Below are positions 36,204-52,799 of a stretch of 64,000 nucleotides of DNA, piece after piece. A model generated the notes under the pieces. That model made no database searches, was not told where the DNA came from, and saw only the letters and a program-made list of their open reading frames with translations. The DNA comes from an uncultured Sphingomonadales bacterium. Its GTDB lineage: Bacteria > Pseudomonadota > Alphaproteobacteria > Sphingomonadales > Rhodothalassiaceae. Made by a program: the position numbers and the translations under genes. Each line of letters starts with the position of its first letter. Positions within the stretch are counted from its first letter, which is position 1. The stretch is taken from NCBI GenBank assembly GCA_947499155.1, contig CANMND010000003.1:248001-312000 (forward strand). Reading direction: 5' to 3'.

Positions 36204-36273
36204 GCACCCTCTTGCCACTTTTTTACGCGCATGATCTAAGATAACCCGCCTGTTCCCGGAAGTGAGACAAGAT

Positions 36274-36519
36274 ATGCGTCGTCCCTCGGTTTCGCAGATT
36301 ATCGGCCTGATTGTTGCCAGCCTGATTGTCGGGTTTTTCCTGAAAGTCGGTGATGTGACGCCATTGGAGTTCTGGCGTGGCTTATGGGAACGGATATCTG
36401 CCATGGCCTTGCTGGCATGGGAGTCGGTTGATTCCCTGATGGTCTACATTCTGATGGGTGCCGCCATCGTCGTCCCGCTTTATGTGATCATCCTGATTGT
36501 TCAAAGAAGACGGCGTTAG
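36274..36519 (+). CDS. Small two-helix membrane protein, DUF6460-like
   Basis: An 81-residue protein with two hydrophobic helices (IIGLIVASLIVGFFLKVGDV and VYILMGAAIVVPLYVIILIV) around a Trp-rich amphipathic segment (WRGLWERISAMALLAWESVD). The pattern resembles DUF6460 proteins of alphaproteobacteria. A GTG at 36262 is an alternative start. Function is unknown. Confidence 0.72.
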   Translation: MRRPSVSQIIGLIVASLIVGFFLKVGDVTPLEFWRGLWERISAMALLAWESVDSLMVYILMGAAIVVPLYVIILIVQRRRR

Positions 36520-36568
36520 AAAACTGGCCTTGAATATCCAGTCTGCGTCCTGGAATCATGACGGGTTT

Positions 36569-38521
36569 TTATCCTGACTTCGCAATACGACCAGTGGCTG
36601 TGTGAAAAATGAAATCGGCCGGGTCTGCTTCCCTGGTCATCCGCCAAAACGCATCATTGCGCCAAGGCGTAATCGCGACCACCCGTCCTCTGGAATTTCG
36701 ATACCAATTTTCAGTTCCCGGATGAGTCCAGACCAATTTGGCGTGCGCCTCATCGATCTTGTCATTATAGCTTTCGTAGACTTTCTCGCGAACTTCCACC
36801 TGGCCCGCACCTTTCTCAAACATGGTTGCAAGAATACTTAAGGCATAGTGGGTTTGGTTTTCGATAGACCGGATCATGCTGCCGCCATGGCCGGAGCCGA
36901 CATTGGGGCCTAACAGGATGAAGAAATTGGGGAAACCTGGGACAACTGTACCCAGATAGGCCTTGGCATTATCACCTTCCCAGTATTCTGCAAGACGCCT
37001 GCCATCGCGCCCTGTAACATCATAGGATCCCAACACTTCTGCTGCTTTAAAGCCGGTCGCAAGGACAATGGTATCCACGTCCACTTCCTGACCATCCCCA
37101 GCCATGAGCCTGCTCCCCCGGACTTCAGCAAGTCTTTGGGGAATGAGGGAAACATTATCTTTGGTCAACGTCCGGTACCAGCCATTATCAAGCAGCATGC
37201 GTTTTGCAAAAGGAGGGTAATCGGGCAAAACATGCTTAAGCAGATCCTGTCGGTCGCCCAATTCCTCGATCACATATCTGGTAAAATATTCCCGATGACC
37301 ATCATTAATGGCATTGATCGAGCGTTGCGGATCGTGCCAGTCCGGATCACGGAACAGGGTCCCATGCACCCGGTCATTAAAAGTCCAGGTCAGGCGTTGC
37401 TCGTACCACGCCTTGTAAAGCGGCACTGCACGAATGAGATAGCGTACGCCTTCAGGCACTTTCTTTCGGAATTGCGGAAAAGGGGCCGCCCACTGTTTTG
37501 ACCTTGCAAATACCGTGAGATGTGAGGCTTTCCTGGCCAATTCAGGGACCACCTGCATCGCTGAGGCGCCATTGCCGATAACGGCTACACGCTTGCCTTC
37601 AATGTCTTCATTGAAATTCTCAGGCCAGTCAGACGTATGAACGACACGACCTTTAAAATTCTCCATCCCCTTGATTTCAGGGATCATGGGAGTATTGAGA
37701 ATGCCAACTGCACTGAAAACAATATCTGCATAATGGTCAGCTATGCTGCCATCGGCCCTTTCCACTACCACGTGCCACTTGGCCCGATCTTCCAGCCAGT
37801 TGGCGCTTTTGACGGTGGTCTCAAATTCAGTGACCTTGTAAAGATCAAATGCCTCCGCTGTCTCTTTGAAATATGCGGAGATTTCTGCCTGAAGCGGAAA
37901 ATATCGGCTCCAGTCAGCATCTCTGAAAGAGAAGGTGTATGTCAGATTGGGCGTATCAACGCCGCAGCCCGGATATCTGTTTTCCCACCAGGTACCGCCA
38001 AACTCTTCATTCTTCTCAAAAATTCTGGCTTTTATGCCCATTTTCTGAAGCTGGACTGCAGCACATATGCCTGAGACGCCTGCTCCTATAATGATGGCAT
38101 CTACTGGCCGTTGTATTTCTGGCCCGCGCGTTTCCGGCTCAAGCTGCATATTGAAGGCCAATATTTCTCCATAACCTTCAGGAATATCCTCTGCCATTGC
38201 GACGCTGAGCATATGCTCCAGATCTTTATTGTCAGGCACCGGCAAAGCCATATCTTTCCCATCAAGCCATGCCATGATCGCATCAAATGCAGCTTCCCTT
38301 ATTTCATCTTGAAGATCCTGTTCCAGTCCTGCGGTATCATTATCATCCAGGCCACGGCCCCGGCGCGGTTTATAAGGATCGTCCAGCCATTTTCTGTCGC
38401 CCGTCATTTGAACCAGACACATCAGAAGTGATGGAATATTTGCCTGATCAACACCAGTCTTCAGCAGGTCTGTATCAATCGCACTGCAAGAAATTGGTCT
38501 TTTGGTAATTTTGAGCAACAT
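36569..38521 (-). CDS. Flavin-containing monooxygenase, Baeyer-Villiger type
   Basis: A 650-residue type I Baeyer-Villiger monooxygenase, predicted to convert a ketone to an ester or lactone with FAD, NADPH and oxygen. The order is an N-terminal extension of about 135 residues, the FAD site IIIGAGVSGICAAVQLQ, GTWWENRYPGCGVDTPN, the family fingerprint FKGRVVHTSDWP, and the NADPH site GNGASAMQ with later ATGFK. The long N-terminal extension recalls 4-hydroxyacetophenone monooxygenases. ATG 38521 is chosen because CAGGAACAAA precedes it at ideal spacing; ATG 38536 and 38572 are upstream in frame. It is divergent from the MBL hydrolase gene with a candidate TetR operator between them. Confidence 0.9.
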   Translation of the reverse strand: MLLKITKRPISCSAIDTDLLKTGVDQANIPSLLMCLVQMTGDRKWLDDPYKPRRGRGLDDNDTAGLEQDLQDEIREAAFDAIMAWLDGKDMALPVPDNKDLEHMLSVAMAEDIPEGYGEILAFNMQLEPETRGPEIQRPVDAIIIGAGVSGICAAVQLQKMGIKARIFEKNEEFGGTWWENRYPGCGVDTPNLTYTFSFRDADWSRYFPLQAEISAYFKETAEAFDLYKVTEFETTVKSANWLEDRAKWHVVVERADGSIADHYADIVFSAVGILNTPMIPEIKGMENFKGRVVHTSDWPENFNEDIEGKRVAVIGNGASAMQVVPELARKASHLTVFARSKQWAAPFPQFRKKVPEGVRYLIRAVPLYKAWYEQRLTWTFNDRVHGTLFRDPDWHDPQRSINAINDGHREYFTRYVIEELGDRQDLLKHVLPDYPPFAKRMLLDNGWYRTLTKDNVSLIPQRLAEVRGSRLMAGDGQEVDVDTIVLATGFKAAEVLGSYDVTGRDGRRLAEYWEGDNAKAYLGTVVPGFPNFFILLGPNVGSGHGGSMIRSIENQTHYALSILATMFEKGAGQVEVREKVYESYNDKIDEAHAKLVWTHPGTENWYRNSRGRVVAITPWRNDAFWRMTREADPADFIFHTATGRIAKSG

Positions 38522-38620
38522 TTTGTTCCTGGACATGGATGACTTTAAGGGCTCGGACTTTTCACACAGCAATGGCTAATCATAGATAGTCACATACTGA
38601 CTCAGAACTAGCATTAAAAA

Positions 38621-38642
38621 AAATATACTGACAGGTATTTTT
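38621..38642. promoter_or_regulatory. Candidate TetR operator, site 1
   Basis: AAATATAC-TGACAG-GTATTTTT in the divergent region between the BVMO and MBL hydrolase genes. The core ATAC-N6-GTAT is identical in form to the sites at 43381, 44892 and 45035. An extra half-site ATACTGAC lies at 38594-38601. Binding by the TetR protein encoded at 41502-42149 is inferred from site placement. Confidence 0.65.
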
Positions 38643-38785
38643 TTGTCAATCAGTCGCATTAATTATGCTAGATTACTGTGTCGACGGCTATGAAGGCTGG
38701 AAAAGCCATTGCGCTCTCACGGGCGCATCACAATCGTGCGCATGCGTATGACGGCCATGAAAATCCTCAGGGGGGACAGTTATTT

Positions 38786-39709
38786 ATGAACAGGTTCACA
38801 ATCGGATCGATAAAAGTCACCAGAATTGAAGAATGGCAAGGTGGGTTTTCAGCTCCTGAATATCTTTTCCCCAGTTGCACCGCAGAGGACTGGACATCTC
38901 TTGAAGAGGAATTCACCCCTGAATATTTCGATGCCCGGTCGGGAAAACTTTACGCATTTCTTCAAAGCTGGGTTCTTGATACTGGTGAGTATCGCATCCT
39001 CTTTGATACTGGGGCCGGTAACGATAAACCAAGGCCAAACCTTCCCATATTCTCAAACCTGAAGACCGACTTTTTGTTAAATCTGGCCAAGGCCGGGTAT
39101 CAGCCAGAAGACATAGACTATGTCGTCTGTTCTCATGTCCACGTCGATCATGTCGGGTGGAACACACGGCTTATCGACGGCAAATGGGAAGCCACTTTCC
39201 GCAATGCGCAATATCTGTTGCCTCTTGCAGATAGAGATTATTGGAATCCGCAGGTAACGGAAATTGGGCCGGGAGAAATTGGCAGGCTTGTCAATGATGG
39301 CATGTTCGAGGACAGCGTCAGGCCACTTATGAACTCAGGCCGATTGGTCTGGACCGAGGACGGACACGAGATACTCCCTGGTATAGTCTTGCGCACATTT
39401 CCCGGACACACTCCCGGAAGCACGGTTATGAATGTGCATTCAGGAAACATGAAGGCGATGTTCGTCGGTGATCTTATGCACCATCCGGCACAGATCTATC
39501 ACCCTTACTGGAACAGCCAGTTCTGCGAGGATCAGGAAATTGCAATATTATCGCGCCTCCGGATGCTCAAGCAGGCGGCTTCAACAGATGCCGTGGTCAT
39601 TCCTGCTCATTTTGGCGGGGAGCACATCGTTAAAATCGCAAGTGAGGGATCAGGATTCCGGCCAATTTACCTCAAAAGTGCGACTGGCCAGGGCGGCTTT
39701 TCCGCTTAA
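38786..39709 (+). CDS. MBL-fold metallo-hydrolase, YtnP-like (candidate lactonase)
   Basis: A 307-residue metallo-beta-lactamase-fold protein with the two-metal motif SHVHVDHVGWNTR (HxHxDH), later TFPGHTPGST and FVGDLMHHPAQ, and a final His in PAHFGGEH. This arrangement resembles YtnP-type lactonases. Since it faces the BVMO gene across a shared operator, the simplest idea is that it opens the lactone made by the BVMO; that is inference. ATG 38786 is preceded by GGGGGG 12 bases away; the longer frame to 38678 has no ribosome site. Confidence 0.85.
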   Translation: MNRFTIGSIKVTRIEEWQGGFSAPEYLFPSCTAEDWTSLEEEFTPEYFDARSGKLYAFLQSWVLDTGEYRILFDTGAGNDKPRPNLPIFSNLKTDFLLNLAKAGYQPEDIDYVVCSHVHVDHVGWNTRLIDGKWEATFRNAQYLLPLADRDYWNPQVTEIGPGEIGRLVNDGMFEDSVRPLMNSGRLVWTEDGHEILPGIVLRTFPGHTPGSTVMNVHSGNMKAMFVGDLMHHPAQIYHPYWNSQFCEDQEIAILSRLRMLKQAASTDAVVIPAHFGGEHIVKIASEGSGFRPIYLKSATGQGGFSA

Positions 39710-39810
39710 AGCATTTCAAAAGCACTACGCAATCAGGTGATGGTATGGACAACAGTGCCGATCTTCTTGCTGCCACTGTTGTCCACTGACTTCTATGCGG
39801 GCGACCCCCT

Positions 39811-41451
39811 TCAATCGGCAAACCGCTCACGTTTGACACGCATTTTTGCCGCTTCCCGGTCCCAAGTATCTGCCGTAATCCCTTCGGTACGCAAATCAAC
39901 TTTCAGCACTTTTTCTGAGGGGGTTTTGGGCAGGTTATCCATGATCCTGATATAGCGCGGAACCATGAAATACGGCATCTTGTCTATAAGAAATTCTGAG
40001 AGTTCCACAGGGTCTATGGTGCGTCCAGGTACCGGTGCGATCACAATCATGACCTCGTCTTCAGAATATTCGCTGGGGACAGCGATTGCTGCCACTTCGC
40101 GGACATCAGGATGGGAACATACTTCTGCTTCAACCTCAAAAGAGGAGATATTCTCCCCACGGCGACGGATTGAATCCTTTACCCTGTCTACGAAATAAAA
40201 ATATTTGTCTTCATCTTGCCTGAAGCCATCGCCGGTGTGAAACCAGCCGTTTCTCCATGCCTTGGCCGTTGCCTCGGGGTCGGCATTATAGCCGCTGTTC
40301 ATGGCCCATGGACGGTCCGTACGAACCAGCATTTCGCCGGCCACACCAATCGGGACCTCGCAATCATTTTCATCGACCAATCTCACTTCGACGCCGGGAC
40401 GAACCTTGCCGCATGTTCCGCGTTTTTTAGGGTTTGGCTCAGATATAATCGGCGAGGATATTTCGGTCATATTGAATATGGTATAGACATCAATCCCAAA
40501 GCGCTCATTAAAGGCTGTGCTGTCATCACTCAGCGGAACCATGAACGCAATTCTCACTTTATGATCGCGTTCTTCAGGGGTCGCGGGACGTTTCATCAGG
40601 AAGCTGGCCATTACTCCCAGCAGGAAAATGACGGTTGCCTCCGTCTGCTTGGCGATTTCCCAGAAACGGTCCGTGGAAAACTCATTGATAATGGCAACAG
40701 ATGCGCCGCGAGCAAGCATAACAAACGGTGGCAGCATGCCGCCAATATGGAATATAGGCGCGACTGTCAGATAACGGTCATGCTCTCCAACCATGTGCCA
40801 TGTTTCTGGCCCTGCATTAGAAAACATGTGCAGATAAGATGACAGGACACCCTTGGAGGGACCTGTGGTTCCTGAAGTATAGATGATGGCCTGGATATCC
40901 CAGGGATCTATCGGCCTTTCCAATGGCTTAAGACTGGACTCATCTTCGTCCAGTTCATCGAACCGGACATAGGGCAAAGGAGAACTCTGCACGGCCCTAT
41001 CGGTTGTCACCACCAGTTTCTCAAGATTTGCCGTATCGATTTCGGTCAATCTCTCTATCAGATCCGGATGAACAATCATCACTTTGGCGGCTGAATTTGC
41101 AACCACATGTGCCAGCAACTTTCCCTTATACGCCGTATTAAATGGAACAAAAATGGCACCGATATAATTTATGGCATAAAACGCCACGATTGCATCAGGC
41201 CCGTTGGGTAGCCAGAGAGCCACGCGGTCGCCCTGTTTAATTCCAAGTTTCTGCAACCCACTGGCTTTTTTCCTGACACGTGCACGCACTTCAGAAAAGC
41301 TCCAAGCCTCCCCATCCTGATATACAATATGCGTATCCTCAGGCTTAACGTCAGCCCACTTGTCCAGGACATAACGTAATACACACTTGTCTCTGTTTGG
41401 TATCCGTGGATCAGCAAAGTCTCGCTTGAACCCTACTTCTTGATCAGACAT
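39811..41451 (-). CDS. Acyl-CoA ligase, AMP-binding (CaiC-like)
   Basis: A 546-residue adenylate-forming ligase, predicted to activate a carboxylic acid intermediate to its CoA thioester. IIYTSGTTGPSKGVL is the P-loop motif, WFHTGDGFRQDEDKYFYFVDRVKDSIRRRGENIS covers the hinge in its central part, and the catalytic Lys near the C terminus is in KTPSEKVLKVDL. The type resembles crotonobetaine/carnitine-CoA ligases. ATG 41451 (MSDQEVGF) is preceded by GGGGAG; ATG 41487 is in frame upstream. It is last in the operon ADH-tetR-ligase. Confidence 0.9.
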   Translation of the reverse strand: MSDQEVGFKRDFADPRIPNRDKCVLRYVLDKWADVKPEDTHIVYQDGEAWSFSEVRARVRKKASGLQKLGIKQGDRVALWLPNGPDAIVAFYAINYIGAIFVPFNTAYKGKLLAHVVANSAAKVMIVHPDLIERLTEIDTANLEKLVVTTDRAVQSSPLPYVRFDELDEDESSLKPLERPIDPWDIQAIIYTSGTTGPSKGVLSSYLHMFSNAGPETWHMVGEHDRYLTVAPIFHIGGMLPPFVMLARGASVAIINEFSTDRFWEIAKQTEATVIFLLGVMASFLMKRPATPEERDHKVRIAFMVPLSDDSTAFNERFGIDVYTIFNMTEISSPIISEPNPKKRGTCGKVRPGVEVRLVDENDCEVPIGVAGEMLVRTDRPWAMNSGYNADPEATAKAWRNGWFHTGDGFRQDEDKYFYFVDRVKDSIRRRGENISSFEVEAEVCSHPDVREVAAIAVPSEYSEDEVMIVIAPVPGRTIDPVELSEFLIDKMPYFMVPRYIRIMDNLPKTPSEKVLKVDLRTEGITADTWDREAAKMRVKRERFAD

Positions 41452-41501
41452 GGAAACTCCCCGAACAGGTGATGCTGTTACTACCAACTTTGTTATAGTG
41501 C

Positions 41502-42149
41502 TCAGCCAACCCCGACCAACCTGAGACAGGCCGTTACAACCTCATCGACAACCTTTTCACTTGATCGACTGCTTCCTGGCCGGTAGCAGGTGGTAATCCA
41601 TGTAAGCAACCCGGCCATCCAGGCAGACATTGCGCTGGCATTTTCAATAGTTACATAACCGTCTTCCTCGCAAGCAGCGACCAGCCTGGCTATTTTCAAG
41701 TCGAACTCGTGACGCAGACGAAGAATGCGCTGGGCGTCGTCGCGGTCCAGATTCATCATCTCGCGCTGATATACTACCAGGTACTCATGATGTTCGATGA
41801 TGATCCGTGCGACTTCCCTAAGAGATGCCTCCAGCCTCTCCAAAGAGTTGCCCTCATGCTGGGCGATATGGCCAAGCGCTGCCAGGGATTCCTTTACTCC
41901 CAGCTCGCAAATGGCGCTCAAAATATCGCCCTTGTTTTTAAAATATGTATAAAGAAACGGTTTGGTCACGCTCAGCCGATTGGCGAGTGCTTCCAGGGTC
42001 GCTCCTTCGTACCCTCTTTCGTAGAAAAGAGCGCTGGCTTCTTTCAAGATGGTGGCGCGTTTATATGCAATCACACCTGATTTCAATTCACGCTGCCGCT
42101 CTTTAGCTTCAGACTTCACATCAAATGAATTATCAACTGCAGGGCGCAT
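41502..42149 (-). CDS. TetR/AcrR family regulator of the catabolic cluster
   Basis: A 215-residue TetR protein. The helix-turn-helix is at about residues 40-85: FYERGYEGATLEALANRLSV followed by TKPFLYTYFKNKGDILSAI. The C-terminal ligand domain has no assigned effector. Its start codon shares one base with the stop of the alcohol dehydrogenase gene (TAATG), so it is in that operon and probably autoregulated through the operator at 43381. It is the only regulator within the cluster and the natural candidate for binding the four ATAC-N6-GTAT sites. Confidence 0.92.
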   Translation of the reverse strand: MRPAVDNSFDVKSEAKERQRELKSGVIAYKRATILKEASALFYERGYEGATLEALANRLSVTKPFLYTYFKNKGDILSAICELGVKESLAALGHIAQHEGNSLERLEASLREVARIIIEHHEYLVVYQREMMNLDRDDAQRILRLRHEFDLKIARLVAACEEDGYVTIENASAMSAWMAGLLTWITTCYRPGSSRSSEKVVDEVVTACLRLVGVG

Positions 42150-43327
42150 TAAGCTGCTCTCCTAAGTATCTCCATAATATCGTCCGGTGTCCGCACAGGC
42201 CGTGAGTTTGTTCGGCCCCACATATCAAGCATGGTATATTCAGCAATTTTTTGGAATTGATCTTTGGTCACCCCCACCTCACTCAAAGTTCGGGGCATTC
42301 CCAGTCCGCGTATGAATTCATCCAGTGCCACAGAGGCACTTTTATTTGCATCACCCAGGCATTCTGATATGCGCTTTTGGCGGCTGTCATCATATTCCGC
42401 ATTCCACGCAAGGACATAGGGCGACATCACACAAGATGTATATCCGTGAGGAACATCGCAAGTACCGCCCAGTATATGACCAATAGCATGGCTCGCACCC
42501 ATTGGAACTCCACCAATGATTGAGATCATCGATTGCCACGCGCCGATCTGGCACTTCAGTCTGCCTTCCAGATCGTCCGGATCGGATTTGACCCGCGTCA
42601 GCCCCTCCACAAGCAACAACAAGGCACTCGCCGCCAGACCATCTGCAAAATCATTGGATCGATAGGAACTCAGTGTCTCGACAGCATGGTCAACTGAACG
42701 CACTCCAGTGGAAATCCATAACCATTCGGGCGTGTGAACGGTAACGGCCGGATCGAGCACAACCATCACCGGCGCCATCTTCCGATGTTCATATCCCTGT
42801 TTGTGCTGTGTTGCCTCGTCTGTTGCACCGGAGAGATCGTTAAACTCGCCGCCAGATAATGTTGTAGGAATACAAATAACAGGAATATCCGGTCCGACCT
42901 CGATCGGATTGATCACATTGCCTTCATCATCAACATATGTTCTTAACGGCTCGAAATCTTCAACCGCCTGCACATCATGCTTTATAAGCAGCGGGACAAT
43001 TTTTCCCGCATCAGTCACAGAACCGCCCCCTAGCGTCACCACGCAATCTGCACCGGCGTGCCTTGCTGCCTTGGCAGCTTTCAGCACGTCAGACCGTGGT
43101 GCATGGGGCGCTATACCGCTCCATGTCCCTGCGTGGTTACCACCTAATGCTTTTTCTAGCTTTGCCACTTCATCGGTTTTTTTCCTCAAAGAGGTAGACG
43201 CTATAAGAAAGACCCGCCTGGCACCTGTTTTCCTGATCTGATCCGACACCACATCGACGGCAGGATGCCCCATGGTCACGCGTTCGGTTACGGTAAATGT
43301 CAACTCACCATTAAAATTTCCGCCCAA
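42149..43327 (-). CDS. Iron-containing alcohol dehydrogenase (maleylacetate-reductase-like)
   Basis: A 392-residue group III alcohol dehydrogenase. The NAD site GGGSVTDAGK is at about 100-109 and the metal region contains VRSVDHAVETL, then ASHAIGHILGG and DVPHGYTSC with the conserved histidines. The sequence pattern is close to maleylacetate reductases, but related enzymes act on many alcohols and ketones. Within this cluster it may oxidise a hydroxyl group made by the P450 or BVMO route; this is inferred. It is the first gene of the operon with tetR and a CoA ligase, downstream of operator site 2. Confidence 0.88.
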   Translation of the reverse strand: MGGNFNGELTFTVTERVTMGHPAVDVVSDQIRKTGARRVFLIASTSLRKKTDEVAKLEKALGGNHAGTWSGIAPHAPRSDVLKAAKAARHAGADCVVTLGGGSVTDAGKIVPLLIKHDVQAVEDFEPLRTYVDDEGNVINPIEVGPDIPVICIPTTLSGGEFNDLSGATDEATQHKQGYEHRKMAPVMVVLDPAVTVHTPEWLWISTGVRSVDHAVETLSSYRSNDFADGLAASALLLLVEGLTRVKSDPDDLEGRLKCQIGAWQSMISIIGGVPMGASHAIGHILGGTCDVPHGYTSCVMSPYVLAWNAEYDDSRQKRISECLGDANKSASVALDEFIRGLGMPRTLSEVGVTKDQFQKIAEYTMLDMWGRTNSRPVRTPDDIMEILRRAA

Positions 43328-43380
43328 AGCGCCCTCCTGTCTGCATGTGTCTTCTTGGACGGGTTATACTGACATGCCGC

Positions 43381-43402
43381 AAATATACTGTCTAGTATGT
43401 AA
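43381..43402. promoter_or_regulatory. Candidate TetR operator, site 2
   Basis: AAATATAC-TGTCTA-GTATGTAA lies 54 bases upstream of the alcohol dehydrogenase start and also in front of the divergent AMACR-like gene. The core matches sites 1, 3 and 4. A further half-site ATACTGAC is at 43366-43373. Confidence 0.65.
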
Positions 43403-43623
43403 AAATACCGATTATTATGCAATGCTCTTGACGAGCGTGCAAAAAATCAGAATAAAGCCATTTCTATATGGCGTGACCGTATGGTTGGCCCTCAAACGGA
43501 GATACTCTGAACTTGTGAACAGCATCATTTCAATTTCGCTCATAAGCCCGAATAGATGCTGGTTCATATTTGGCTGGACCTTCCATAACGAGCCTTCTTA
43601 AAATCACAGGACACGCACGCGGC

Positions 43624-44778
43624 ATGACCAGTAGCCCCCTTTCATCTTTTAAAATAATCGAGTTCGCTGGATTGGGCCCGACGCCCTTTACAGCAATGAT
43701 GCTGGCAGATCTGGGGGCCGATATTTTAAGGATCGAGCGCCCGACAATTGATAACGAGCCGCTGGTCAATAACAGCCTGAACTACCTCAACAGAGGCCGA
43801 CCATCGGTCACACTGGATCTGCGGTCTCCCGAAGGCGTTAACCTTGCCCGCGAATTGTGCAACAGAGCAGACGTATTAATCGAGGGGTTTCGTCCCGGCA
43901 CGATGGAGCGGCTGGGGCTTGGCCCGAAAGATGTCATGGAGGACAATCCAGGGCTGATTTACGCTCGCACCACAGGATGGGGACAAACCGGACCGCTGGC
44001 TGACAAAGCAGGCCATGACATCAATTATCTGTCTCTTACTGGTGCACTGCAATTGATGGGGCCACCTGACCGCCCCCCACACCCGCCACTTAATATCATG
44101 GGGAATTTTGGCGGTGGCGCGATGTTCAATGTCACCGGCATTCTTGCTGCCATAATCGAGCGATCACGCAGTGGCCTTGGGCAGGTTATAGATACAGCCA
44201 TGCTGGATGGGGCATCTGTACTGCTCACACAGATTTTTTCCTGGAAAGACATGGGATTCTGGCACCCCGAACGAGGCCGTAACCTTCTGGATGGCGGCGC
44301 CTATTTTTATCGCTGCTACGAAACCAAAGATAACAGATACATGGCTGTCGGCGCGCTGGAACAAGAGTTCCATGATGAACTGGTGCAGGCATTGGGGTTT
44401 AAGCTGTCGGACTTTGACGACTATATGAACAGGGATCTATGGCCCGAACGACACCTTCTATTTGCCGAAGCCTTTATCACCAAAACACGTGACGAATGGT
44501 GCGAAATCCTGAAGACTCATGACGCATGTGTAACCCCTGTCCTCTCCCTCGATGAAGCTGTCGCCCACCCCGCCAATATTGAGCGAAAGGTCCACAAAAC
44601 CGACCATTTATTGCGCGCACAGCCTGCACCAGCGCCACGGCTGTCGCGTACACCCGCCATTGCGGGCACCCCTCCCAGTCTCGCCGGAGAAGGCGGTGCG
44701 CACAGTCTGTCTGACTGGGGGATTGACAGTGCGTTGATATCAGGCCTGACCGACAAGGGAATACTACAGGCTCACTAA
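43624..44778 (+). CDS. AMACR-like CoA-family protein with Asp-to-Asn change
   Basis: A 384-residue CaiB/BaiF family protein whose opening IIEFAGLGPTPFTAMMLADL matches alpha-methylacyl-CoA racemases. The catalytic His131 (AGHDINYLS) and Glu246 (VGALE) are present, but the catalytic Asp expected 30 residues after the His is Asn161 (MGNFGGG, codon AAT at 44104-44106). The change may slow racemisation or indicate another reaction, such as CoA transfer. ATG 43624 is chosen; TTG 43570 is upstream in frame. Divergent from the alcohol dehydrogenase operon and before the TonB receptor gene. Confidence 0.87.
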   Translation: MTSSPLSSFKIIEFAGLGPTPFTAMMLADLGADILRIERPTIDNEPLVNNSLNYLNRGRPSVTLDLRSPEGVNLARELCNRADVLIEGFRPGTMERLGLGPKDVMEDNPGLIYARTTGWGQTGPLADKAGHDINYLSLTGALQLMGPPDRPPHPPLNIMGNFGGGAMFNVTGILAAIIERSRSGLGQVIDTAMLDGASVLLTQIFSWKDMGFWHPERGRNLLDGGAYFYRCYETKDNRYMAVGALEQEFHDELVQALGFKLSDFDDYMNRDLWPERHLLFAEAFITKTRDEWCEILKTHDACVTPVLSLDEAVAHPANIERKVHKTDHLLRAQPAPAPRLSRTPAIAGTPPSLAGEGGAHSLSDWGIDSALISGLTDKGILQAH

Positions 44779-44888
44779 AGCGTTATGCAGGCCCTGGCTT
44801 CCATACCTTGATCTGATGCTGGCAGCATCTCCCGCTGCAGAAGTTATCCACGACCTCTCAAGCCAATTTGTCAGGTTACAGCCCCGCC

Positions 44889-44908
44889 TTAATACTGGGC
44901 AGTATGTG
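44889..44908. promoter_or_regulatory. Candidate TetR operator, site 4 (weaker)
   Basis: CTTAATAC-TGGGCA-GTATGTGA keeps the ATAC-N6-GTAT core of the other sites, with a less AT-rich left flank. It lies 143 bases upstream of site 3, a spacing that would allow looping or a second, upstream contact. Confidence 0.5.
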
Positions 44909-45034
44909 ATGCGAACCCATTGTACTTTTTTCTCAGATTCGGCCCACAGGCCCATCGGATATTTGCCTCATCCGACCCACAAAATCGAACAAAAATCGCT
45001 TAAATTGACAGAATAGTGTAGGCTCACGCCTCAT

Positions 45035-45070
45035 AAATATACTTGACGGTATATTTTTAATATATATGGT
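45035..45070 (+). promoter_or_regulatory. Candidate TetR operator site 3 overlapping a promoter
   Basis: AAATATAC-TTGACG-GTATATTT (45035-45056) is a perfect 8+8 palindrome. Its 6-base centre TTGACG (45043-45048) would be the -35 box of a promoter with TATGGT (45065-45070) as -10, 16 bases away. A repressor bound here would block RNA polymerase directly. It precedes the TonB receptor-P450-cyclase genes. Confidence 0.65.
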
Positions 45071-45129
45071 AATTTTAAGGGTAAACTAGATGTGAAAAAG
45101 TCACCAATTCCCCTGGGAGGTAAAAACTA

Positions 45130-47358
45130 ATGCTGAAAGTGTTCCGCCGGACATATGGCTGGCCGTCCTTAATGATTCTGCCCGTTGGTTTTATGGTCAG
45201 TCCAGCAGTCCTTGCCCAGACGGACACCACAGTGCGTGAGCGACAGCCTGCGGAAATCACCGAGATTATCACCTCAACAAGAAAGGTGGAATCACTGTAC
45301 CGGACTGCGGCTTCCGTAAATGCACTTAACGCCGACAGGATGTCAGAAACCGGCATCGACAGCATTGAAGATATACAGTATCTGGTGCCGAATCTGTCCG
45401 TAGGGGATCAGTTCGGCGTCAGCCGTATATTTATCCGTGGAATTGGTCTCACCAGCATTGATCTGGGAGCAGACGGTGCAGTCGCGGTCCTTCTCGACAG
45501 CGCTGCAATCGCACGGCCAGCGGCTCAAATGACCGGCTTTTTCGATGTTGAACGCGTTGAGGTTCTGCGCGGCCCCCAAGGCACCCTTTATGGAAGGGGA
45601 GCCACAGCCGGTGCCATCAACATCATTTCCAAAAAGCCGACTGATGACTTTGAGGGTTATGCAAATCTGACTTATGGCAATTACGACCATTATGGCGTCG
45701 AGGCGGCCATGGGCGGCCCCCTGATTGGCGACGTGGTACTAGGCAGGGTTGCTGTCAAATACGACAACCGGGATGGCTATGGCAAAAACCTGTTCACCGG
45801 AAATGACATTGACGATCAGGATCGTTTGTCCCTGCGCGCCAGCCTTACGCTTAGGCCCAGCTCGACTCTGACCGTAGACCTCGTCGGGGATTATCACCGC
45901 GAGGATGACAATAATTACGCATTCCACTTCTTCGGCGCCACCACGCAGGATCCGCTACTGGCCCAGGTTCTTGGCGGGAAAACAATATTTGATGTTTATG
46001 ACGACCCGGACTTTCATGATCTTTTTTCCAATGAAGACCCTCTCAATGACCGTGAAGGCTATGGCTTCACAGGGACGATAAATTGGGACAAGGACCGCTG
46101 GAATTTCAAATCAATCTCATCTTTTCGCGATTTTGACCGCGTTAACGTAGCCGACCTTGATGTGACTGATATCTCGGCTTTTGGAAAGATCATCTACACG
46201 GAAGACAGCACGACCTTCAGTCAGGACTTCCTCTTGTCCTACACTGAAGCAAAGTACGATGTGCTTGTTGGTGCCACGTATTTCAATGAAAGGCTTGATG
46301 GTACTGTTCAGGTTCCACTTACCAATATCGACCTGATTTTCCCAACTGTGCCGCCAGGGTCAAATTTCCTGCAGGAGGGCAGAATTGATATTGATGCCTT
46401 TGGTGCTTTTATTCAGGGAACATATGAGCTTCTACCCAACCTCCGGGCAACGGCCGGTGTAAGATACAGCTATGAAAAGCGTAAAGGTGTCGGATCATTC
46501 AGCTTTGTTGATACTGTAGCCGGCACTGGCGATCCCTTCACCATACCTACGGACAAATCGGAAAGCTGGAACGCGGTTACACCAAAATTTGTGCTCGATT
46601 ACACCTTTGCCAACGACATGCTGGTCTATGGCTCCGTTTCACGTGGCTTTAAATCAGGCGTCGTCAATATCGGCAGTCTCAACCCTGTGATCGATCCGGA
46701 ATTTGTCTGGGCGTATGAAATCGGCACCAAAGGCACAGCGCTCAATAATTTCCTGCGCTACTCGGCGGCTGCATTCTATTATGATTACAGCAACCTCCAG
46801 GTTGGCCGGGTGAATGAGCAAAGTACGATCACCACGGAAAATGCTGCATCTGCCGAGAATTTTGGCATTGAACTGCAGACCGACTTCCAGTTGACCCCAC
46901 GCTTTCTGGTAGAAACGAGCTTTACATGGCTTGATGCAACATTCACGTCGTTTGACACATTCGAACCAAACCGCCCCGGATTGGGCGAACAGAATCTTTC
47001 AGGCAATCACCTCCCCAACGCCCCTAAATTCACCTTCATGGTGGGTGCTGCTTACAACCAGCCTATTGATAATTTCGGTACAATCACCGTCTCTGGTGAT
47101 GTGAGCTGGACCGATGACCTCTTTTTCTCTGAGTTTAATAACTCGGATGCCTTCCAAAGCGCCTACGCCCTGGTCAATGCAGGTCTGCGTTTCGAATCGG
47201 AAAACAACCGTTGGGGTTTTGATGTTTTCGCCAGAAACCTCGCAAACAAAGAAGCCATTGCCAACAATATCGTCGCAGCGCCTCTGTTCTCATTCGCACG
47301 GGTTGGATCAACCATAGCACCCAGAACCTATGGTGCGACCCTCAGATTGAACTTTTGA
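45130..47358 (+). CDS. TonB-dependent outer-membrane receptor
   Basis: A 742-residue receptor with a signal peptide ending near AVLAQ (residues 28-32) and a possible TonB box in EITEIITSTR. The plug domain carries VERVEVLRGPQGTLYGRGAT and GAINIISKKP; the barrel ends in RTYGATLRLNF with a terminal Phe. It probably imports the substrate of this catabolic cluster or a related hydrophobic molecule across the outer membrane, judged by its co-regulation and operon with the P450. GGGAGG lies 12 bases before the ATG. No siderophore or heme genes are adjacent. Confidence 0.93.
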   Translation: MLKVFRRTYGWPSLMILPVGFMVSPAVLAQTDTTVRERQPAEITEIITSTRKVESLYRTAASVNALNADRMSETGIDSIEDIQYLVPNLSVGDQFGVSRIFIRGIGLTSIDLGADGAVAVLLDSAAIARPAAQMTGFFDVERVEVLRGPQGTLYGRGATAGAINIISKKPTDDFEGYANLTYGNYDHYGVEAAMGGPLIGDVVLGRVAVKYDNRDGYGKNLFTGNDIDDQDRLSLRASLTLRPSSTLTVDLVGDYHREDDNNYAFHFFGATTQDPLLAQVLGGKTIFDVYDDPDFHDLFSNEDPLNDREGYGFTGTINWDKDRWNFKSISSFRDFDRVNVADLDVTDISAFGKIIYTEDSTTFSQDFLLSYTEAKYDVLVGATYFNERLDGTVQVPLTNIDLIFPTVPPGSNFLQEGRIDIDAFGAFIQGTYELLPNLRATAGVRYSYEKRKGVGSFSFVDTVAGTGDPFTIPTDKSESWNAVTPKFVLDYTFANDMLVYGSVSRGFKSGVVNIGSLNPVIDPEFVWAYEIGTKGTALNNFLRYSAAAFYYDYSNLQVGRVNEQSTITTENAASAENFGIELQTDFQLTPRFLVETSFTWLDATFTSFDTFEPNRPGLGEQNLSGNHLPNAPKFTFMVGAAYNQPIDNFGTITVSGDVSWTDDLFFSEFNNSDAFQSAYALVNAGLRFESENNRWGFDVFARNLANKEAIANNIVAAPLFSFARVGSTIAPRTYGATLRLNF

Positions 47359-47378
47359 TCACCATAAGGAGCGAGGCC

Positions 47379-48626
47379 GTGCTGACCAGTTTAAAAACAG
47401 AAGGGTTTGATCCAACGGATCCAAATCTGACTGCGAACCCCTATCCGTTTTATGAGTACCTTCTGAAAGAAGATCCACTTCATCGTGCAAAACATGGATA
47501 CTGGGTGGTATCCCGCCATGAAGATGTGAGAAACCTGTTGCGGGCCAAAACATTCGGCCAGGGAGAATTCATAAACAATATCCAGCTCTTTTATGATGAT
47601 GGGTTCGATGTTCTCAGTCATTCATCTTATCGCTGGCTGTCCCAAATCTTCGTAATGCAGGATCCCCCCCAGCATACGCGGCTGCGCAATCAGGTTGTTC
47701 AGGCGCTAACGGCACGCAGGGTGGAAGCAATGCGCCCGCGTATTCAGGCAATAACAGACTCCTTGATTGAGTCCTCGCTTAAAGATGGCCGCATGGAAGT
47801 CATCCATGACTTTGCCTATCGGCTGCCCACTATCGTCATGTTTGACATGTTGGGGATACCCGAGGAAGAAATCGCTGGCGGGATGCTGGAAAAGCTTAAT
47901 CAGGCCATATCCGACAGCTTTATTGTCTTTGAAACCCGGGCATTCAGTGAAAAAGAGCTGGCTCTTGCCGATCAGCAAATAGATTTCCTGACCGACTTCT
48001 TTAATGAGTACTTTGACAGCAGACGAAAAAATCCAAAAGACGATCTGATGACCGCTCTTGTTGCCTCGCAATCAGAAGAAGGCGGCCTTACAACCGAAGA
48101 AGCGTCTGTTATCGCGATAGGCCTGTTTGGTGCAGGATTTGAGACTACAGCCCACATGATTGGCAATGGCCTTTATTCCTTGCACCAGAATCCTGAACAA
48201 TGGGACCTGCTGCGAAAGAACACTGACCTTTCCCGTAATGTTACGGAAGAGGTCTTGCGCTTTGAGCCATCACTCCAGGCATCTTATCGCACTGCACTGG
48301 AAGACACTGAGTTGGTGGGAAAGCCCATTAAAAAGGGCGAACGGATTTTGGCGCTCATTGGTGCAGCCGGACGTGATCCCGCAGTTTATGAGGATCCCAA
48401 TCGCTTCGACATTACCAGACAGCCAGTAAAGCCATTGGCCTTTGGGGGCGGCATTCATTATTGCGTCGGTGCCCAGCTTGCCCGCCTCGAAGGTGAAATC
48501 GCCTTTGCAACACTGGCGCGCCGTTTCCCCGACATGAATTTGGATATCGATCAGGCGACATGGCGCCCCGCTTTCTTCTTTCGGGGCCTGAATACGCTTC
48601 ATGCGTCATTTTCCACAAAGATCTGA
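47379..48626 (+). CDS. Cytochrome P450
   Basis: A 415-residue soluble bacterial P450. The I-helix motif is GAGFETTAHM, the ExxR motif EEVLRFEP, and the heme-thiolate loop FGGGIHYCVGAQLAR with the axial Cys. It should hydroxylate or epoxidise a hydrophobic substrate. GTG 47379 is preceded by AAGGAG at good spacing and follows the receptor stop by 20 bases; a TTG at 47355 is rejected. No ferredoxin or ferredoxin reductase gene is in the cluster, so electron partners must come from elsewhere. Confidence 0.93.
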   Translation: MLTSLKTEGFDPTDPNLTANPYPFYEYLLKEDPLHRAKHGYWVVSRHEDVRNLLRAKTFGQGEFINNIQLFYDDGFDVLSHSSYRWLSQIFVMQDPPQHTRLRNQVVQALTARRVEAMRPRIQAITDSLIESSLKDGRMEVIHDFAYRLPTIVMFDMLGIPEEEIAGGMLEKLNQAISDSFIVFETRAFSEKELALADQQIDFLTDFFNEYFDSRRKNPKDDLMTALVASQSEEGGLTTEEASVIAIGLFGAGFETTAHMIGNGLYSLHQNPEQWDLLRKNTDLSRNVTEEVLRFEPSLQASYRTALEDTELVGKPIKKGERILALIGAAGRDPAVYEDPNRFDITRQPVKPLAFGGGIHYCVGAQLARLEGEIAFATLARRFPDMNLDIDQATWRPAFFFRGLNTLHASFSTKI

Positions 48627-48653
48627 CGAATAACATCAGGGAGGTAACTAAAC

Positions 48654-49595
48654 GTGTTGAACAAAAAGAAGTTCGGCGAGCAATTGGATTACTGGCCTCA
48701 CCAAACCTATAATTGGGGCCGGTGGGATAATGACCGCGGAACCCTTAATCTTGCAGACAAGGCAGCGACTGCGCGCGGCATGGCATCGATTCAAAGTCAT
48801 GATGTACTCACCCTTGGTTCTGTCATGCGCGGCGACGATGTTCTAAATGAAACAGAATATGACTGTGATTTCGTGCACGATCTCCTTCGTGCCGGAAAAT
48901 ACGACTTTGGCCCCTCTGATGAACCGGTATTTGAGGCTGGAGACAGATTCTCGATCGCCATTCACGGCATGGTTAACGCTCATATTGATGCCTTGTGTCA
49001 TGTTGGTCACCACGGCTTAAGTTTTAATGGCATACCGTTTGAAGATGTTGTCACGCTGGAAAAAGGCGTGCGCAAATTTGATGTGATTGATCTGGGGAGC
49101 CTGGTAACACGCGCCTGGTTTATTGATGTGCCTGAGATGCGCGGGCTAAAAAGCCTGGAACCAGGAGACCCGGTAACAGCAGCGGACCTCATGCATTTTG
49201 CAGGCAAGGTGGAGCCGGGTGATGCCGTCGTCATAAGGACCGGTCGCTTTGCAGCAAAGGTCGTTTTGCCCGGTGAAGACGGCTCGCTTGATGATCATGG
49301 CAACTGGTGCGGTCTTCATGTTGACTGTATCGATGTCCTTGCGGATTGGGATGTCACAACCATAGCAACCGATGGACCTGGTGATAATTTCCCGTCAACC
49401 ACACCCCATTGTTCTGTCCCTATCCACGTGCTGACAGAGGTTTATCTGGGCCTGCCATTGATTCATCATCTGGACCTTGAACAACTGTCAGGGAAAATGG
49501 CGTCCCGTGAGGATAAAAGCTTCCTTTTCATGGCCGCCCCCCTTCAGATAAAAGGTGGCACAGGCTCACCTTTAAGCCCGCTTGCTGTCATCTGA
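48654..49595 (+). CDS. Cyclase family protein (kynurenine formamidase-like hydrolase)
   Basis: A 313-residue metal-dependent hydrolase of the cyclase/KynB-like family. The metal motif is AHIDALCHVGHH, where the first His, Asp and later His are the expected ligands; DDHGNWCGLHVDCIDVLADW follows in the usual place, shown here by its central residues. Known members hydrolyse formamides or open rings; ester or lactone hydrolysis in this cluster is possible but unproved. GTG 48654 has GGGAGG upstream. It follows the P450 by 27 bases and so belongs to the receptor-P450 operon. Confidence 0.88.
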   Translation: MLNKKKFGEQLDYWPHQTYNWGRWDNDRGTLNLADKAATARGMASIQSHDVLTLGSVMRGDDVLNETEYDCDFVHDLLRAGKYDFGPSDEPVFEAGDRFSIAIHGMVNAHIDALCHVGHHGLSFNGIPFEDVVTLEKGVRKFDVIDLGSLVTRAWFIDVPEMRGLKSLEPGDPVTAADLMHFAGKVEPGDAVVIRTGRFAAKVVLPGEDGSLDDHGNWCGLHVDCIDVLADWDVTTIATDGPGDNFPSTTPHCSVPIHVLTEVYLGLPLIHHLDLEQLSGKMASREDKSFLFMAAPLQIKGGTGSPLSPLAVI

Positions 49596-49734
49596 ATGGC
49601 GCGGTCATTTATGAATGATCTATTCGTGTCGCGGACTGTTATCGGGTTACAATAAGTCCGATATCTGATGCTCACATAAGGAACTGGCACCCGCACAATT
49701 GTTATTATGCCGGACATAAAGAAAGGACGCGGCC

Positions 49735-51351
49735 ATCAGTAAATACCAGAAGGATCTAGGCCCCACGTCTGCCAATTATGCACCATTGTCACCCGTTTCT
49801 TTTGTGCGCCGGGCAGCTTTGGCCTTTCCTGATGCTCCGGCTATCCTGTTTGATGGAAAAAGCCAGACTTGGGCGGCAACAGATAGGCGTTGCCGCCGCC
49901 TTGCCAGCGCATTGCGTGCAGCAGGTGTCGGCCCTGATTCAACGGTTGCCGTTTTGGCTCGCAACATACCGGCATCCGTTGAACTGGCCTATGCAGTGCC
50001 CATGGCCCGTGGCGTTTTGAATATGATCAATACGCGGCTGGATCCGTCAGGGGTCGCCTATATCCTTGACCATGGAGAGGCAGAGCTTTTCATAGTGGAC
50101 AAGGCATTGGCGCCAACCGCAGAAGCGGCTCTGAAGCTCACAAAAGTCCGGCCCAAAATAATCATTACAGACGCACATGACGGGCCCACAGACTCAAATC
50201 TTGATGGCGAGGATTATGAGACCTTTCTGGCAGCACATGAGCCGATCGCACCCGCCGATATATTGCCGGCAGATGAATGGGACGCCATTGCCTTGAACTA
50301 TACATCGGGTACGACTGGCTCTCCCAAAGGTGCTATCTACCATCATCGCGGCGCCTATCTCAATGCCTTGGGAAATGCGCTGGAATGGTCCTTGCCTGCC
50401 CAGCCACGCTATTTATGGACGCTCCCGCTCTTTCATTGCAATGGCTGGTGTTTTCCGTGGACCATAGCTGCGAAAGCCGGGGTCAATATCTGTCTGCGCG
50501 CACCTGTCGCCTCCGATATCATCGATGCGATTACTGATCATGCTGTTACCCATCTTTGTGGCGCGCCTATTGTCCTTAATATGGCGGTTATGGAGCTTGA
50601 AGCCCGGAAACAGACGCTCCCAACGCCCGTGCGCATGATGACTGCGGGCGCACCACCGCCAGCACAGGTTCTTTTGCGTGCAGAGGCCGTCGGCTTCGAC
50701 ATCACGCACGTCTATGGCCTTACCGAAGTCTATGGACCCACAGCCATCTGCGCCTGGCGGCCGGAATGGGATGCTCTCTCGCCACCAGACCGTGCTGCAA
50801 AAAGAGCGCGGCAAGGGGTCAATTACACCGTTCTTGAAGAGCTAAGCGTGCGCGACCCTGAAACCATGATGGAAACTGCCAATGATGGAGTGACAATCGG
50901 GGAAATAATGTTTCGCGGAAATGTGGTGATGAAGGGCTATCTGAAGAATTCAGCCGCCACGAAAGAAGCGCTTTCAGGAGGGCATTTTCATTCAGGCGAC
51001 CTTGGCGTTCGTCATCCTGACGGCCATATTGAGCTTAAGGACCGTTCTAAAGATATCATCATTTCCGGTGGTGAGAACATATCTTCAATTGAGGTCGAAA
51101 ATATTCTCTACAAGCATCCGGCAGTGGTCGAAGCAGCCGTTGTCGCCGCTCCCAGTGAAAAATGGGGCGAAACTCCTGTTGCCTTCATCGAATTAAAAGA
51201 TGGCGTAAAAACCAGTGAGGCTGAAATCATTGCCTTCTGCAGGAGCAATCTTGCCCATTTCAAATGCCCAACCAAAGTGACATTTACAAAGCTTCCAAAA
51301 ACATCGACCGGGAAGATACAAAAATTTCAGCTCCGGGACATGCTGAAATAA
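49735..51351 (+). CDS. Acyl-CoA ligase, AMP-binding, probable ATC start
   Basis: An adenylate-forming CoA ligase resembling medium-chain or methylmercaptopropionate-type ligases. Motifs are NYTSGTTGSPKGAIYHHRGA, TLPLFHCNGWCFPW and, near the end, KTSTGKIQKFQLRDML with the catalytic Lys. The family N terminus (YxxxLGPTxANYxPLSPVSF) is encoded from about 49744, upstream of any ATG, GTG or TTG in frame except TTG 49786, which would cut it. The only fitting start is ATC 49735 (then SKYQKDLG), with AAAGGA 7 bases before it. It lies 139 bases after the cyclase gene. Confidence 0.8.
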   Translation: MSKYQKDLGPTSANYAPLSPVSFVRRAALAFPDAPAILFDGKSQTWAATDRRCRRLASALRAAGVGPDSTVAVLARNIPASVELAYAVPMARGVLNMINTRLDPSGVAYILDHGEAELFIVDKALAPTAEAALKLTKVRPKIIITDAHDGPTDSNLDGEDYETFLAAHEPIAPADILPADEWDAIALNYTSGTTGSPKGAIYHHRGAYLNALGNALEWSLPAQPRYLWTLPLFHCNGWCFPWTIAAKAGVNICLRAPVASDIIDAITDHAVTHLCGAPIVLNMAVMELEARKQTLPTPVRMMTAGAPPPAQVLLRAEAVGFDITHVYGLTEVYGPTAICAWRPEWDALSPPDRAAKRARQGVNYTVLEELSVRDPETMMETANDGVTIGEIMFRGNVVMKGYLKNSAATKEALSGGHFHSGDLGVRHPDGHIELKDRSKDIIISGGENISSIEVENILYKHPAVVEAAVVAAPSEKWGETPVAFIELKDGVKTSEAEIIAFCRSNLAHFKCPTKVTFTKLPKTSTGKIQKFQLRDMLK

Positions 51352-51390
51352 GATCGCCAGTCCCTGACAATGCATGAAGATGACGGCCTT

Positions 51391-51406
51391 GCACCATCTA
51401 TGGTGC
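51391..51406. terminator. Short hairpin after the CoA ligase gene
   Basis: GCACCAT-CT-ATGGTGC is a perfect 7-bp stem with a 2-base loop, 40 bases after the ligase stop. No T-run follows, so its role as a terminator is uncertain. Confidence 0.3.
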
Positions 51407-51446
51407 CAGAGGCAAAATACGTATCTGACTTCACTGATATGAAAAA

Positions 51447-51462
51447 GCTGATATATATCAGC
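51447..51462. promoter_or_regulatory. 16-bp perfect palindrome
   Basis: GCTGATATATATCAGC is a continuous palindrome of 16 bases between the end of the catabolic cluster and the tRNA-Leu gene. It could be an operator or a structural boundary element; nothing else in the window matches it by eye. Confidence 0.3.
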
Positions 51463-51544
51463 AGGCACCTGTCATAAAGAGCGCAGGTGGATAAACCGCC
51501 GCTAAAGCCTGTTCCCTGCCCCGATATAACCTCAAAGCAGGAAA

Positions 51545-51631
<87 letters not shown>

Positions 51632-51845
51632 AAGGGGCAGTGATGGCGATAGCTAAGGTGGTGTTCGTTGCTTGTCAAGCGTGATATGTGCTTTGTCATG
51701 AAACTGGTACCAGAGCGTACTCAATCAATTGCACAGTGCGCCTCTGGTGGATAAACTGCGCTCGATTCGTCTTCATTTCGCGCCGGCTCCCACAGAACAA
51801 TGGTCTGTAAACAGACTGGAACGTTGGCACATTCAGGAGAGAAAT

Positions 51846-52799
51846 ATGTCCAGCCCTTTGGCAACCGTATTTGGAGGTTCAGGTTTCCTTGGCCGCTATG
51901 TGGTGCAAAGGCTGGCCCGGCACGGCTACCGTATTCGTGTAGTTGTCCGCAGGCCTGAAAGGGCAATTGATCTGCAGCCCTTGGGGTCTGTTGGCCAAAT
52001 TCAGATCGTCAAGGCCAATATCCTGGATGACGCCTCATGCAGACGCATGCTTGCGGGTTCGGAACTCGCCATTAATCTGGTAGGCGTCCTCACCCCGTCT
52101 GGCCGTCAAACCTTCAGGGCCATCCACGAACAAGGTGCCGCCAATGTCGCCAAAGCAGCGCAACTAGCCGGTGTCAAAACACTAATTCATATTTCTGCCA
52201 TTGGAGCAGGCCCCGACGCGCCATCTGCTTACGGCAAAAGCAAGGCGAAAGGTGAAGCGGAAGTGCTGTCTGCATTTCCCAATGCAACGATCCTGCGGCC
52301 ATCTGTTGTCTTTGGGCCAGAGGATGATTTTACCAACCGCTTTGCCGCCCTTGGCCGCCGTCTGCCCTTCATGCCGGTAATTTGTGGCGATACACGCTTC
52401 CAGCCCGTCTATGCTGGGGACGTGGCCGATGCAGTCCTTGCGGTGATAAAGGCTGGTGGCGATGCCATGGGAAAAACCTATGAATTGGGCGGGCCAACAA
52501 TTTACAGCTTCCGTGACCTGCTAAAGCTGATCATGACAGAAGCGATGATCGATCGCCCACTAGTGGATGTGCCAAATTTTATTGCCAGGTTCATGGCATC
52601 GGTCGGACGCTTCATGCCCAAGCCGCCGATTACTCCGGACCAATTGCTCTCGCTTGGGCGTGACACGGTCGTATCGGACAATGCACTTACCCTTGAAACC
52701 CTTGGGATCAGCCCAACACCGGCAGAGGCTGTTATACCAGCCTATCTGCGTCGTTATCGCCCCAAGGGACAATTTTCACGTCTCGACAAGCAAGGCTGA
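51846..52799 (+). CDS. Complex I NDUFA9-like NAD(P)-binding protein
   Basis: A 317-residue atypical short-chain dehydrogenase/reductase. The nucleotide-binding motif is VFGGSGFLGRYVVQRLARHG at the start; IHISAIGAGPDAPSAYGKSK and LRPSVVFGPEDDF follow. These match the complex I NDUFA9 subunit-type proteins of alphaproteobacteria, which are structural NADPH-binding subunits in mitochondria. ATG 51846 is preceded by AGGAG. A possible hairpin after the stop (CAGGGC-TTGCC-GCCCTG, 52832-52848) may end transcription. Confidence 0.88.
   Translation: MSSPLATVFGGSGFLGRYVVQRLARHGYRIRVVVRRPERAIDLQPLGSVGQIQIVKANILDDASCRRMLAGSELAINLVGVLTPSGRQTFRAIHEQGAANVAKAAQLAGVKTLIHISAIGAGPDAPSAYGKSKAKGEAEVLSAFPNATILRPSVVFGPEDDFTNRFAALGRRLPFMPVICGDTRFQPVYAGDVADAVLAVIKAGGDAMGKTYELGGPTIYSFRDLLKLIMTEAMIDRPLVDVPNFIARFMASVGRFMPKPPITPDQLLSLGRDTVVSDNALTLETLGISPTPAEAVIPAYLRRYRPKGQFSRLDKQG

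What the first reader, a model, noticed from the sequence alone, without database searches (positions are those of the whole stretch)
44104..44106. AMACR-like protein with catalytic Asp replaced by Asn
Residue 161 is Asn (codon AAT) at the position, 30 residues after His131, where racemases of this family have the catalytic Asp. His131 and Glu246 are intact, so it is not a general decay. The change predicts altered catalysis, for example CoA transfer or one-way deprotonation.
Basis: partly seen in the sequence, partly recalled or inferred. Interest (0 to 1): 0.55.

Follow-up and report, generated by a model that had tools for sequence, protein, structure and literature searches.

The report
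Racemase-like enzyme with swapped catalytic residue
An enzyme resembling a well-known fatty-acid racemase has one of its two catalytic bases replaced by a look-alike that cannot carry a proton, and many other bacteria keep the same swap in a shared breakdown-pathway gene cluster, so it looks like a change of chemistry rather than an error.

Summary
Codon AAT at 44104-44106 gives Asn161, aligned without gaps to catalytic Asp156 of the solved racemase MCR; His131 and Glu246 match His126 and Glu241. It is not a base-calling accident or decay: a motif scan of one genome per species (84,980 species) found 29 MCR homologues with Asn there (20 alphaproteobacterial, mostly sphingomonads; 9 actinobacterial). 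26 of the 29 regions hold a Baeyer-Villiger monooxygenase (BVMO) homologue and 25 an iron alcohol dehydrogenase, as in the window. Searches started from neighbour genes instead of the Asn gave 23 Asn, 5 Asp and nothing else among 28 cluster-borne homologues, so Asn is predominant, not obligatory. All 28 share Trp207 and Arg230. Best reading: a one-base acyl-CoA enolising enzyme (His131/Glu246 as base, Asn161 in the oxyanion hole) serving a BVMO catabolic pathway, perhaps by beta-elimination. CoA transfer is unlikely, because that chemistry needs the missing Asp. Reaction and substrate are inferred, not shown. No paper on this was seen in the searches made (open-licence library only).

The parts
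44104..44106 (+). AAT codon, Asn161, at the position of MCR catalytic Asp156
43624..44778 (+). MCR/AMACR-like protein, 384 aa (PF02515); His131, Glu246, Trp207, Arg230
   Evidence: inside the sphingomonad cluster-borne clade, support 100/100
36569..38572 (-). Baeyer-Villiger-type flavin monooxygenase with N-terminal extension
   Evidence: Pfam FMO-like; best solved relatives are steroid and cyclohexanone monooxygenases; homologue in 26 of 29 Asn regions; the BVMO fingerprint (recalled) is visible in the translation
38678..39709 (+). metallo-beta-lactamase-fold hydrolase
   Evidence: Pfam; homologues in many sphingomonad clusters
39811..41487 (-). AMP-forming acyl-CoA ligase
   Evidence: Pfam; homologue in 19 of 20 sphingomonad Asn regions
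41502..42149 (-). TetR-family regulator (TetR_C_24)
   Evidence: Pfam
42149..43327 (-). iron-containing alcohol dehydrogenase, divergent from the racemase-like gene
   Evidence: Pfam; homologue in 25 of 29 Asn regions
45130..47358 (+). TonB-dependent receptor
   Evidence: homologues in sphingomonad clusters
47355..48626 (+). cytochrome P450
   Evidence: Pfam; homologues in many sphingomonad clusters

Best explanation
The gene encodes a member of an MCR/AMACR-like subfamily that belongs to a conserved BVMO / CoA-ligase / iron-alcohol-dehydrogenase catabolic cluster. The enzyme most likely still binds an acyl-CoA and takes its alpha proton with the His131/Glu246 dyad. Asn161 keeps the shape and hydrogen bonding of the lost Asp in the oxyanion hole but cannot carry a proton, so catalysis is one-base and one-face. 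Such an enzyme is a poor two-way racemase and is better suited to a reaction that starts from one epimer or a prochiral acyl-CoA, such as beta-elimination or double-bond migration. Shown by sequence: the Asn, the intact dyad, the conservation, the cluster. Inferred: the one-base chemistry, the reaction and the substrate.
For: Alignment to MCR. Of 28 homologues found through neighbour genes, 23 have Asn, 5 Asp, none anything else; His131 in 28 of 28, Glu at 246 in 27 of 28, Trp207 and Arg230 in 28 of 28. 26 of 29 motif-found Asn regions hold a BVMO homologue. Six close pairs of Asn members have dN/dS 0.06-0.29. In MCR, His126 deprotonates the S and Asp156 the R epimer, and Asp156 binds the thioester oxygen and Asn152 (PMC12246613, passages). 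MCR D156A kept kcat/Km 0.44 against 1.07 x 10^6 per M per s in an elimination assay, while an earlier radiochemical assay gave under 0.2% (PMC10967716, passages).
Against: Five cluster-borne members keep Asp with the same neighbours, so the pathway works with either residue, and the Asp/Asn choice may be nearly neutral. In the same elimination assay MCR H126A and E241A also kept 0.11 and 0.63 x 10^6, so elimination is not specific to loss of Asp, and the authors call the disagreement between assays unclear. No substrate is known, no assay was done, and the predicted model is unreliable at the active site. Three clusters with Fe-ADH, ligase and a BVMO homologue show no MCR homologue in the stretch read.
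Confidence: 0.5

Rival explanations
1. It is still a working racemase or epimerase: the discrete enolate is reprotonated from solvent on the Asn side, so Asp and Asn are nearly interchangeable.
For: Five Asp and 23 Asn members in the same kind of cluster; the tree needs at least four Asp/Asn changes; AMACR forms a discrete enolate that is reprotonated without stereoselectivity (PMC8142540 and PMC12246613, passages).
Against: Under 0.2% activity of MCR D156A in the radiochemical assay cited in PMC10967716; the Asp is kept in all 56 close Asp-type rows compared; Asn is kept over long branches.
Confidence: 0.25
2. It is a pseudo-enzyme, for instance a CoA-ester-binding or regulatory subunit of the pathway.
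For: A canonical catalytic residue is lost while the window genome keeps a separate Asp-type homologue, L002.
Against: His131 and the 246 acid are kept in 28 of 28 (27 Glu, 1 Asp), the site is only Asn or Asp, and close pairs show purifying selection.
Confidence: 0.12
3. It is a CoA-transferase.
For: Pfam family name only.
Against: Best solved relatives are racemases at about 350 bits against 133 for the best CoA-transferase; NCBIfam CoA-transferase models score far below cut-off; the nucleophilic Asp of that mechanism (recalled) is missing.
Confidence: 0.03
4. Sequencing error or early decay of a racemase gene.
For: Asp to Asn is one G-to-A change; the window gene is a fairly long branch (0.71); no reads are available.
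Against: The same Asn in relatives from many organisms; open frame, dyad intact.
Confidence: 0.02

Closest known systems
MCR, alpha-methylacyl-CoA racemase of M. tuberculosis (PDB 1x74, 8rmw, 9i2t)
   Same: Full-length alignment at about 350 bits; His126, Glu241, Asp127, Tyr130, Asn152, Arg38, Arg85 and Arg91 have identical counterparts
   Different: Asp156 is Asn161; Met202 of the acyl pocket is Trp207; Asp225 is Arg230; Lys62 is Arg67 and Met111 is Thr116
FAR, probable fatty-acid-CoA racemase of M. tuberculosis (PDB 2g04)
   Same: Similar score, same catalytic dyad
   Different: Has Asp at the site
Asp-type cluster members L182, L189, L190, L191, L192
   Same: 56-58% identical to the window protein, Trp207 and Arg230, same neighbour genes
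   Different: Asp at 161
Family III CoA-transferases (succinate-HMG, formyl-CoA and others)
   Same: Same Pfam family
   Different: Much weaker matches (133 bits or less); their mechanism (recalled) needs the Asp that is missing here

Membership tests
Alpha-methylacyl-CoA racemase (AMACR/MCR) | Sequence similarity over the full length to characterised racemases | tested here: met
   residues 2-365, E about 1e-104
Alpha-methylacyl-CoA racemase (AMACR/MCR) | His126/Glu241 catalytic dyad | tested here: met
   His131 and Glu246
Alpha-methylacyl-CoA racemase (AMACR/MCR) | Second catalytic base, Asp156 | tested here: not met
   Asn161
Alpha-methylacyl-CoA racemase (AMACR/MCR) | Racemisation of 2-methylacyl-CoA | not testable with these tools
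   needs an enzyme assay
Family III CoA-transferase superfamily (PF02515) | Pfam model over its cut-off | tested here: met
   259.9 bits against 23.3
Family III CoA-transferase (as an activity) | Nucleophilic Asp at this position (mechanism recalled) | tested here: not met
   Asn161; six distant family III rows have Asp in 6 of 6
BVMO-linked Asn/Asp subfamily described here | Trp207 and Arg230 marks | tested here: met
   window has both; 28 of 28 neighbour-found members have both; among 54 close Asp-type rows from other loci one has Trp and two have Arg
BVMO-linked Asn/Asp subfamily described here | Cluster with BVMO, Fe-ADH and acyl-CoA ligase | tested here: met
   window genes; relatives

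The most novel reading that the evidence does not exclude
The subfamily is a new enzyme type: an acyl-CoA beta-lyase that evolved from a racemase by giving up one base. The BVMO inserts oxygen so that an acyloxy group lies beta to a CoA thioester; the Asn-type enzyme takes the alpha proton with His131/Glu246 and expels the carboxylate (E1cB), opening an ester or lactone without a hydrolase.
Probability: 0.15. Interest if true: 0.75.

Novelty: new variant of a known kind. Interest (0 to 1): 0.5.

Why it matters
AMACR/MCR is a classic two-base racemase and a drug target. A natural subfamily in which one base is replaced by its non-ionisable twin, with Asp-bearing sisters in the same kind of cluster, is a natural experiment on whether both bases are needed and on how a racemase can turn into a lyase or isomerase. 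Annotation of such genes as racemase or CoA-transferase should not be taken at face value. The cluster also marks a BVMO pathway, of unknown substrate, shared by sphingomonads and actinobacteria.

Tried and rejected
CoA-transferase reading: rejected (missing Asp). Sequencing error: rejected on the relatives. My first idea that Asn is universal in the subfamily was refuted by the neighbour-gene search, which found five Asp members. One clean origin of the Asn, as in the first tree (one clade plus Prauserella): with the Asp members added and column 161 removed, the best tree needs at least four changes; but AU tests reject neither actinobacterial and sphingomonad members as one clade (p 0.352), nor the same with Prauserella (p 0.237), nor the 26 intact sphingomonad Asn rows as one clade (p 0.0891), so the number of changes stays open. 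BVMO as a sufficient marker of Asn: rejected; an Asp-type homologue lies two genes downstream of a 48%-identical BVMO on a Rhodococcus opacus plasmid, and a Tistrella plasmid has BVMO and ligase with no CaiB/BaiF-type gene annotated in the stretch shown. Phytone as substrate: one paper search gave nothing useful; dropped. Paper searches on the cluster and on an Asn at this site: nothing on either seen in the listings. Structure prediction: mean pLDDT 68.9, under 50 at residues 119-164, so no fold search was made.

Full report
What is there. The frame at 43624-44778 (+) encodes 384 residues, Pfam CoA_transf_3. Against solved structures the best hits are the racemases MCR and FAR of M. tuberculosis at about 350 bits; the best CoA-transferase scores 133 bits. 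Asn161 stands opposite MCR Asp156, His131 and Glu246 opposite His126 and Glu241. Of MCR residues that hold CoA or the thioester, Arg38, Arg85, Arg91, Asp127, Tyr130 and Asn152 are identical in the window protein, while Lys62 is Arg67 and Met111 is Thr116 (roles from passages of PMC12246613 and PMC12682127).

Is the Asn an accident? A plasmid of Novosphingobium sp. EMRT-2 carries a 60%-identical protein with the same Asn. A scan of genome contigs (one genome for each of 84,980 species by the tool's description) for the DNA of the local motif with Asn gave 39 stretches; 29 are MCR homologues and 10 are unrelated. 20 are from sphingomonads or alphaproteobacterial bins, 9 from actinobacteria. Asn is there by construction; Glu246 is kept in 29 of 29, His131 in 27 of the 27 that reach it. 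The motif was exact, so variants were missed (for example L184, with Tyr after the Asn).

Neighbours. The 29 regions (several cut by contig ends) were searched with 12 window proteins. A BVMO homologue lies in 26 of 29 and the Fe-ADH in 25 of 29. The three without BVMO are L108 (starts at a contig end), L109 (contig starts 2.5 kb before the ligase match) and L124 (only the racemase-like gene found on a 7.5 kb contig). In the 20 sphingomonad-type regions the ligase is in 19; P450, lactamase-fold hydrolase, TetR and TonB receptor are frequent. In the 9 actinobacterial regions BVMO is in 9, a ligase family in 9, a TetR family in 7 and Fe-ADH in 6; ligase, TetR_C_24 regulator and monooxygenase were identified by Pfam in the Rhodococcus example. 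The same functions thus recur in two phyla.

A test that does not start from the Asn. The window's Fe-ADH was searched in 397 genomes of the family of G443 (the Sphingomonas echinoides genome): 22 matches at E 1e-110 or better. With wider stretches for 12 of them, 18 of 22 have an MCR homologue in the cluster: 13 Asn, 5 Asp, no other residue. Six of the 13 are genomes of the motif set. One of the 13 (L193) has an in-frame TAG and Asp at 246. Four of 22 show no MCR homologue in the stretch read. The Rhodococcus BVMO was searched in 381 genomes: 80 matched; loci came back for 30 places, of which 11 have a BVMO of 69% identity or more. 10 of these 11 have an MCR homologue within the 1.5 kb flank, all Asn, eight of them genomes of the motif set; the eleventh (L196) and the 19 loci with BVMOs of 67% or less show none in the flank. 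Together 28 members: 23 Asn, 5 Asp; His131 28 of 28; Glu at 246 in 27 of 28; Trp207 and Arg230 28 of 28.

Contrast. 54 close homologues from the window genome, 40 relatives and 385 alphaproteobacterial genomes (loci), plus MCR and FAR, all have Asp; six distant rows and one fragment (L065) were set aside before that count. By eye, among the places listed, no listed homologue except the window's lies within 20 kb of a listed BVMO; both lists are truncated. A counter-example outside that sample is the Asp-type homologue near a BVMO on a Rhodococcus opacus plasmid.

Subfamily. With column 161 removed, the sphingomonad cluster-borne proteins, window included, form one clade (100/100). Four of the five Asp members form the first branch and L182 (Asp) sits among Asn members; starred branches force at least four Asp/Asn changes. 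The actinobacterial Asn members join MCR in that tree, but a joint clade with the sphingomonads is not rejected (p 0.352), and the shared Trp207 and Arg230 speak for it; these marks are rare in the other Asp-type rows (one Trp, two Arg of 54). The Prauserella protein shares Asn, Arg230 and a BVMO neighbour but not Trp207; adding it to the clade is not rejected (p 0.237). Six close Asn pairs have dN/dS 0.06-0.29, one Asp pair 0.07. The window genome keeps an Asp-type homologue, L002, 45% identical; in the two other genomes of its genus that were searched the best match groups with L002, so the Asn-type gene was not seen there.

How it may work. In MCR, His126 takes the proton of the S epimer and Asp156 that of the R epimer; Asp156 also binds the thioester oxygen and Asn152 (PMC12246613, passages). 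Asn keeps shape and hydrogen bonding but not the proton. MCR D156A kept about 41% of kcat/Km in an assay of dinitrophenolate elimination, while an earlier radiochemical assay had given under 0.2% (PMC10967716, passages). The authors call the reason unclear; I read it as a hint that elimination needs only the dyad. Against that, H126A (0.11) and E241A (0.63 against 1.07 x 10^6) also kept activity in the same assay. AMACR can eliminate through an enolate (PMC8142540, passages). A BVMO can put an acyloxy group beta to a carboxyl group, a fitting leaving group; hence the lyase proposal, which is inference. That only Asn or Asp occurs at the site suggests that its shape or hydrogen bond matters even where its charge does not.

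Limits. No reads, no assay, no reliable active-site model. The paper library holds open-licence papers only; searches listed nothing on an Asn at this site or on this cluster.

Noticed in passing
36569-51631: G+C over 36001-52000 is 0.48-0.52 against mostly 0.53-0.58 elsewhere in the window (other dips exist), and a tRNA-Leu gene lies at 51545-51631 just past the cluster; the stretch may be an acquired island.
   Followed up: partly
48654-51351: A cyclase-family protein and a second AMP-forming ligase follow the P450. Cyclase-family and ligase genes also lie near BVMO homologues on a Rhodococcus opacus and a Sphingopyxis sp. FD7 plasmid.
   Followed up: no
L063:6910-7893, family F7: A quinone-oxidoreductase-like protein (PIG3 type, below the curated cut-off) is found in 11 of 30 cluster regions compared; it is not among the 12 window genes compared. 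Weak likeness to acryloyl-CoA reductases.
   Followed up: partly
L193:7988-9118: One relative's racemase-like gene has an in-frame TAG and Asp in place of Glu246; it may be inactive.
   Followed up: partly
L185, L186, L187: Three sphingomonad clusters with Fe-ADH, TetR, ligase and a BVMO homologue show no MCR homologue in the stretch read (L187 is cut by a contig end), so the step may be dispensable or done elsewhere.
   Followed up: no
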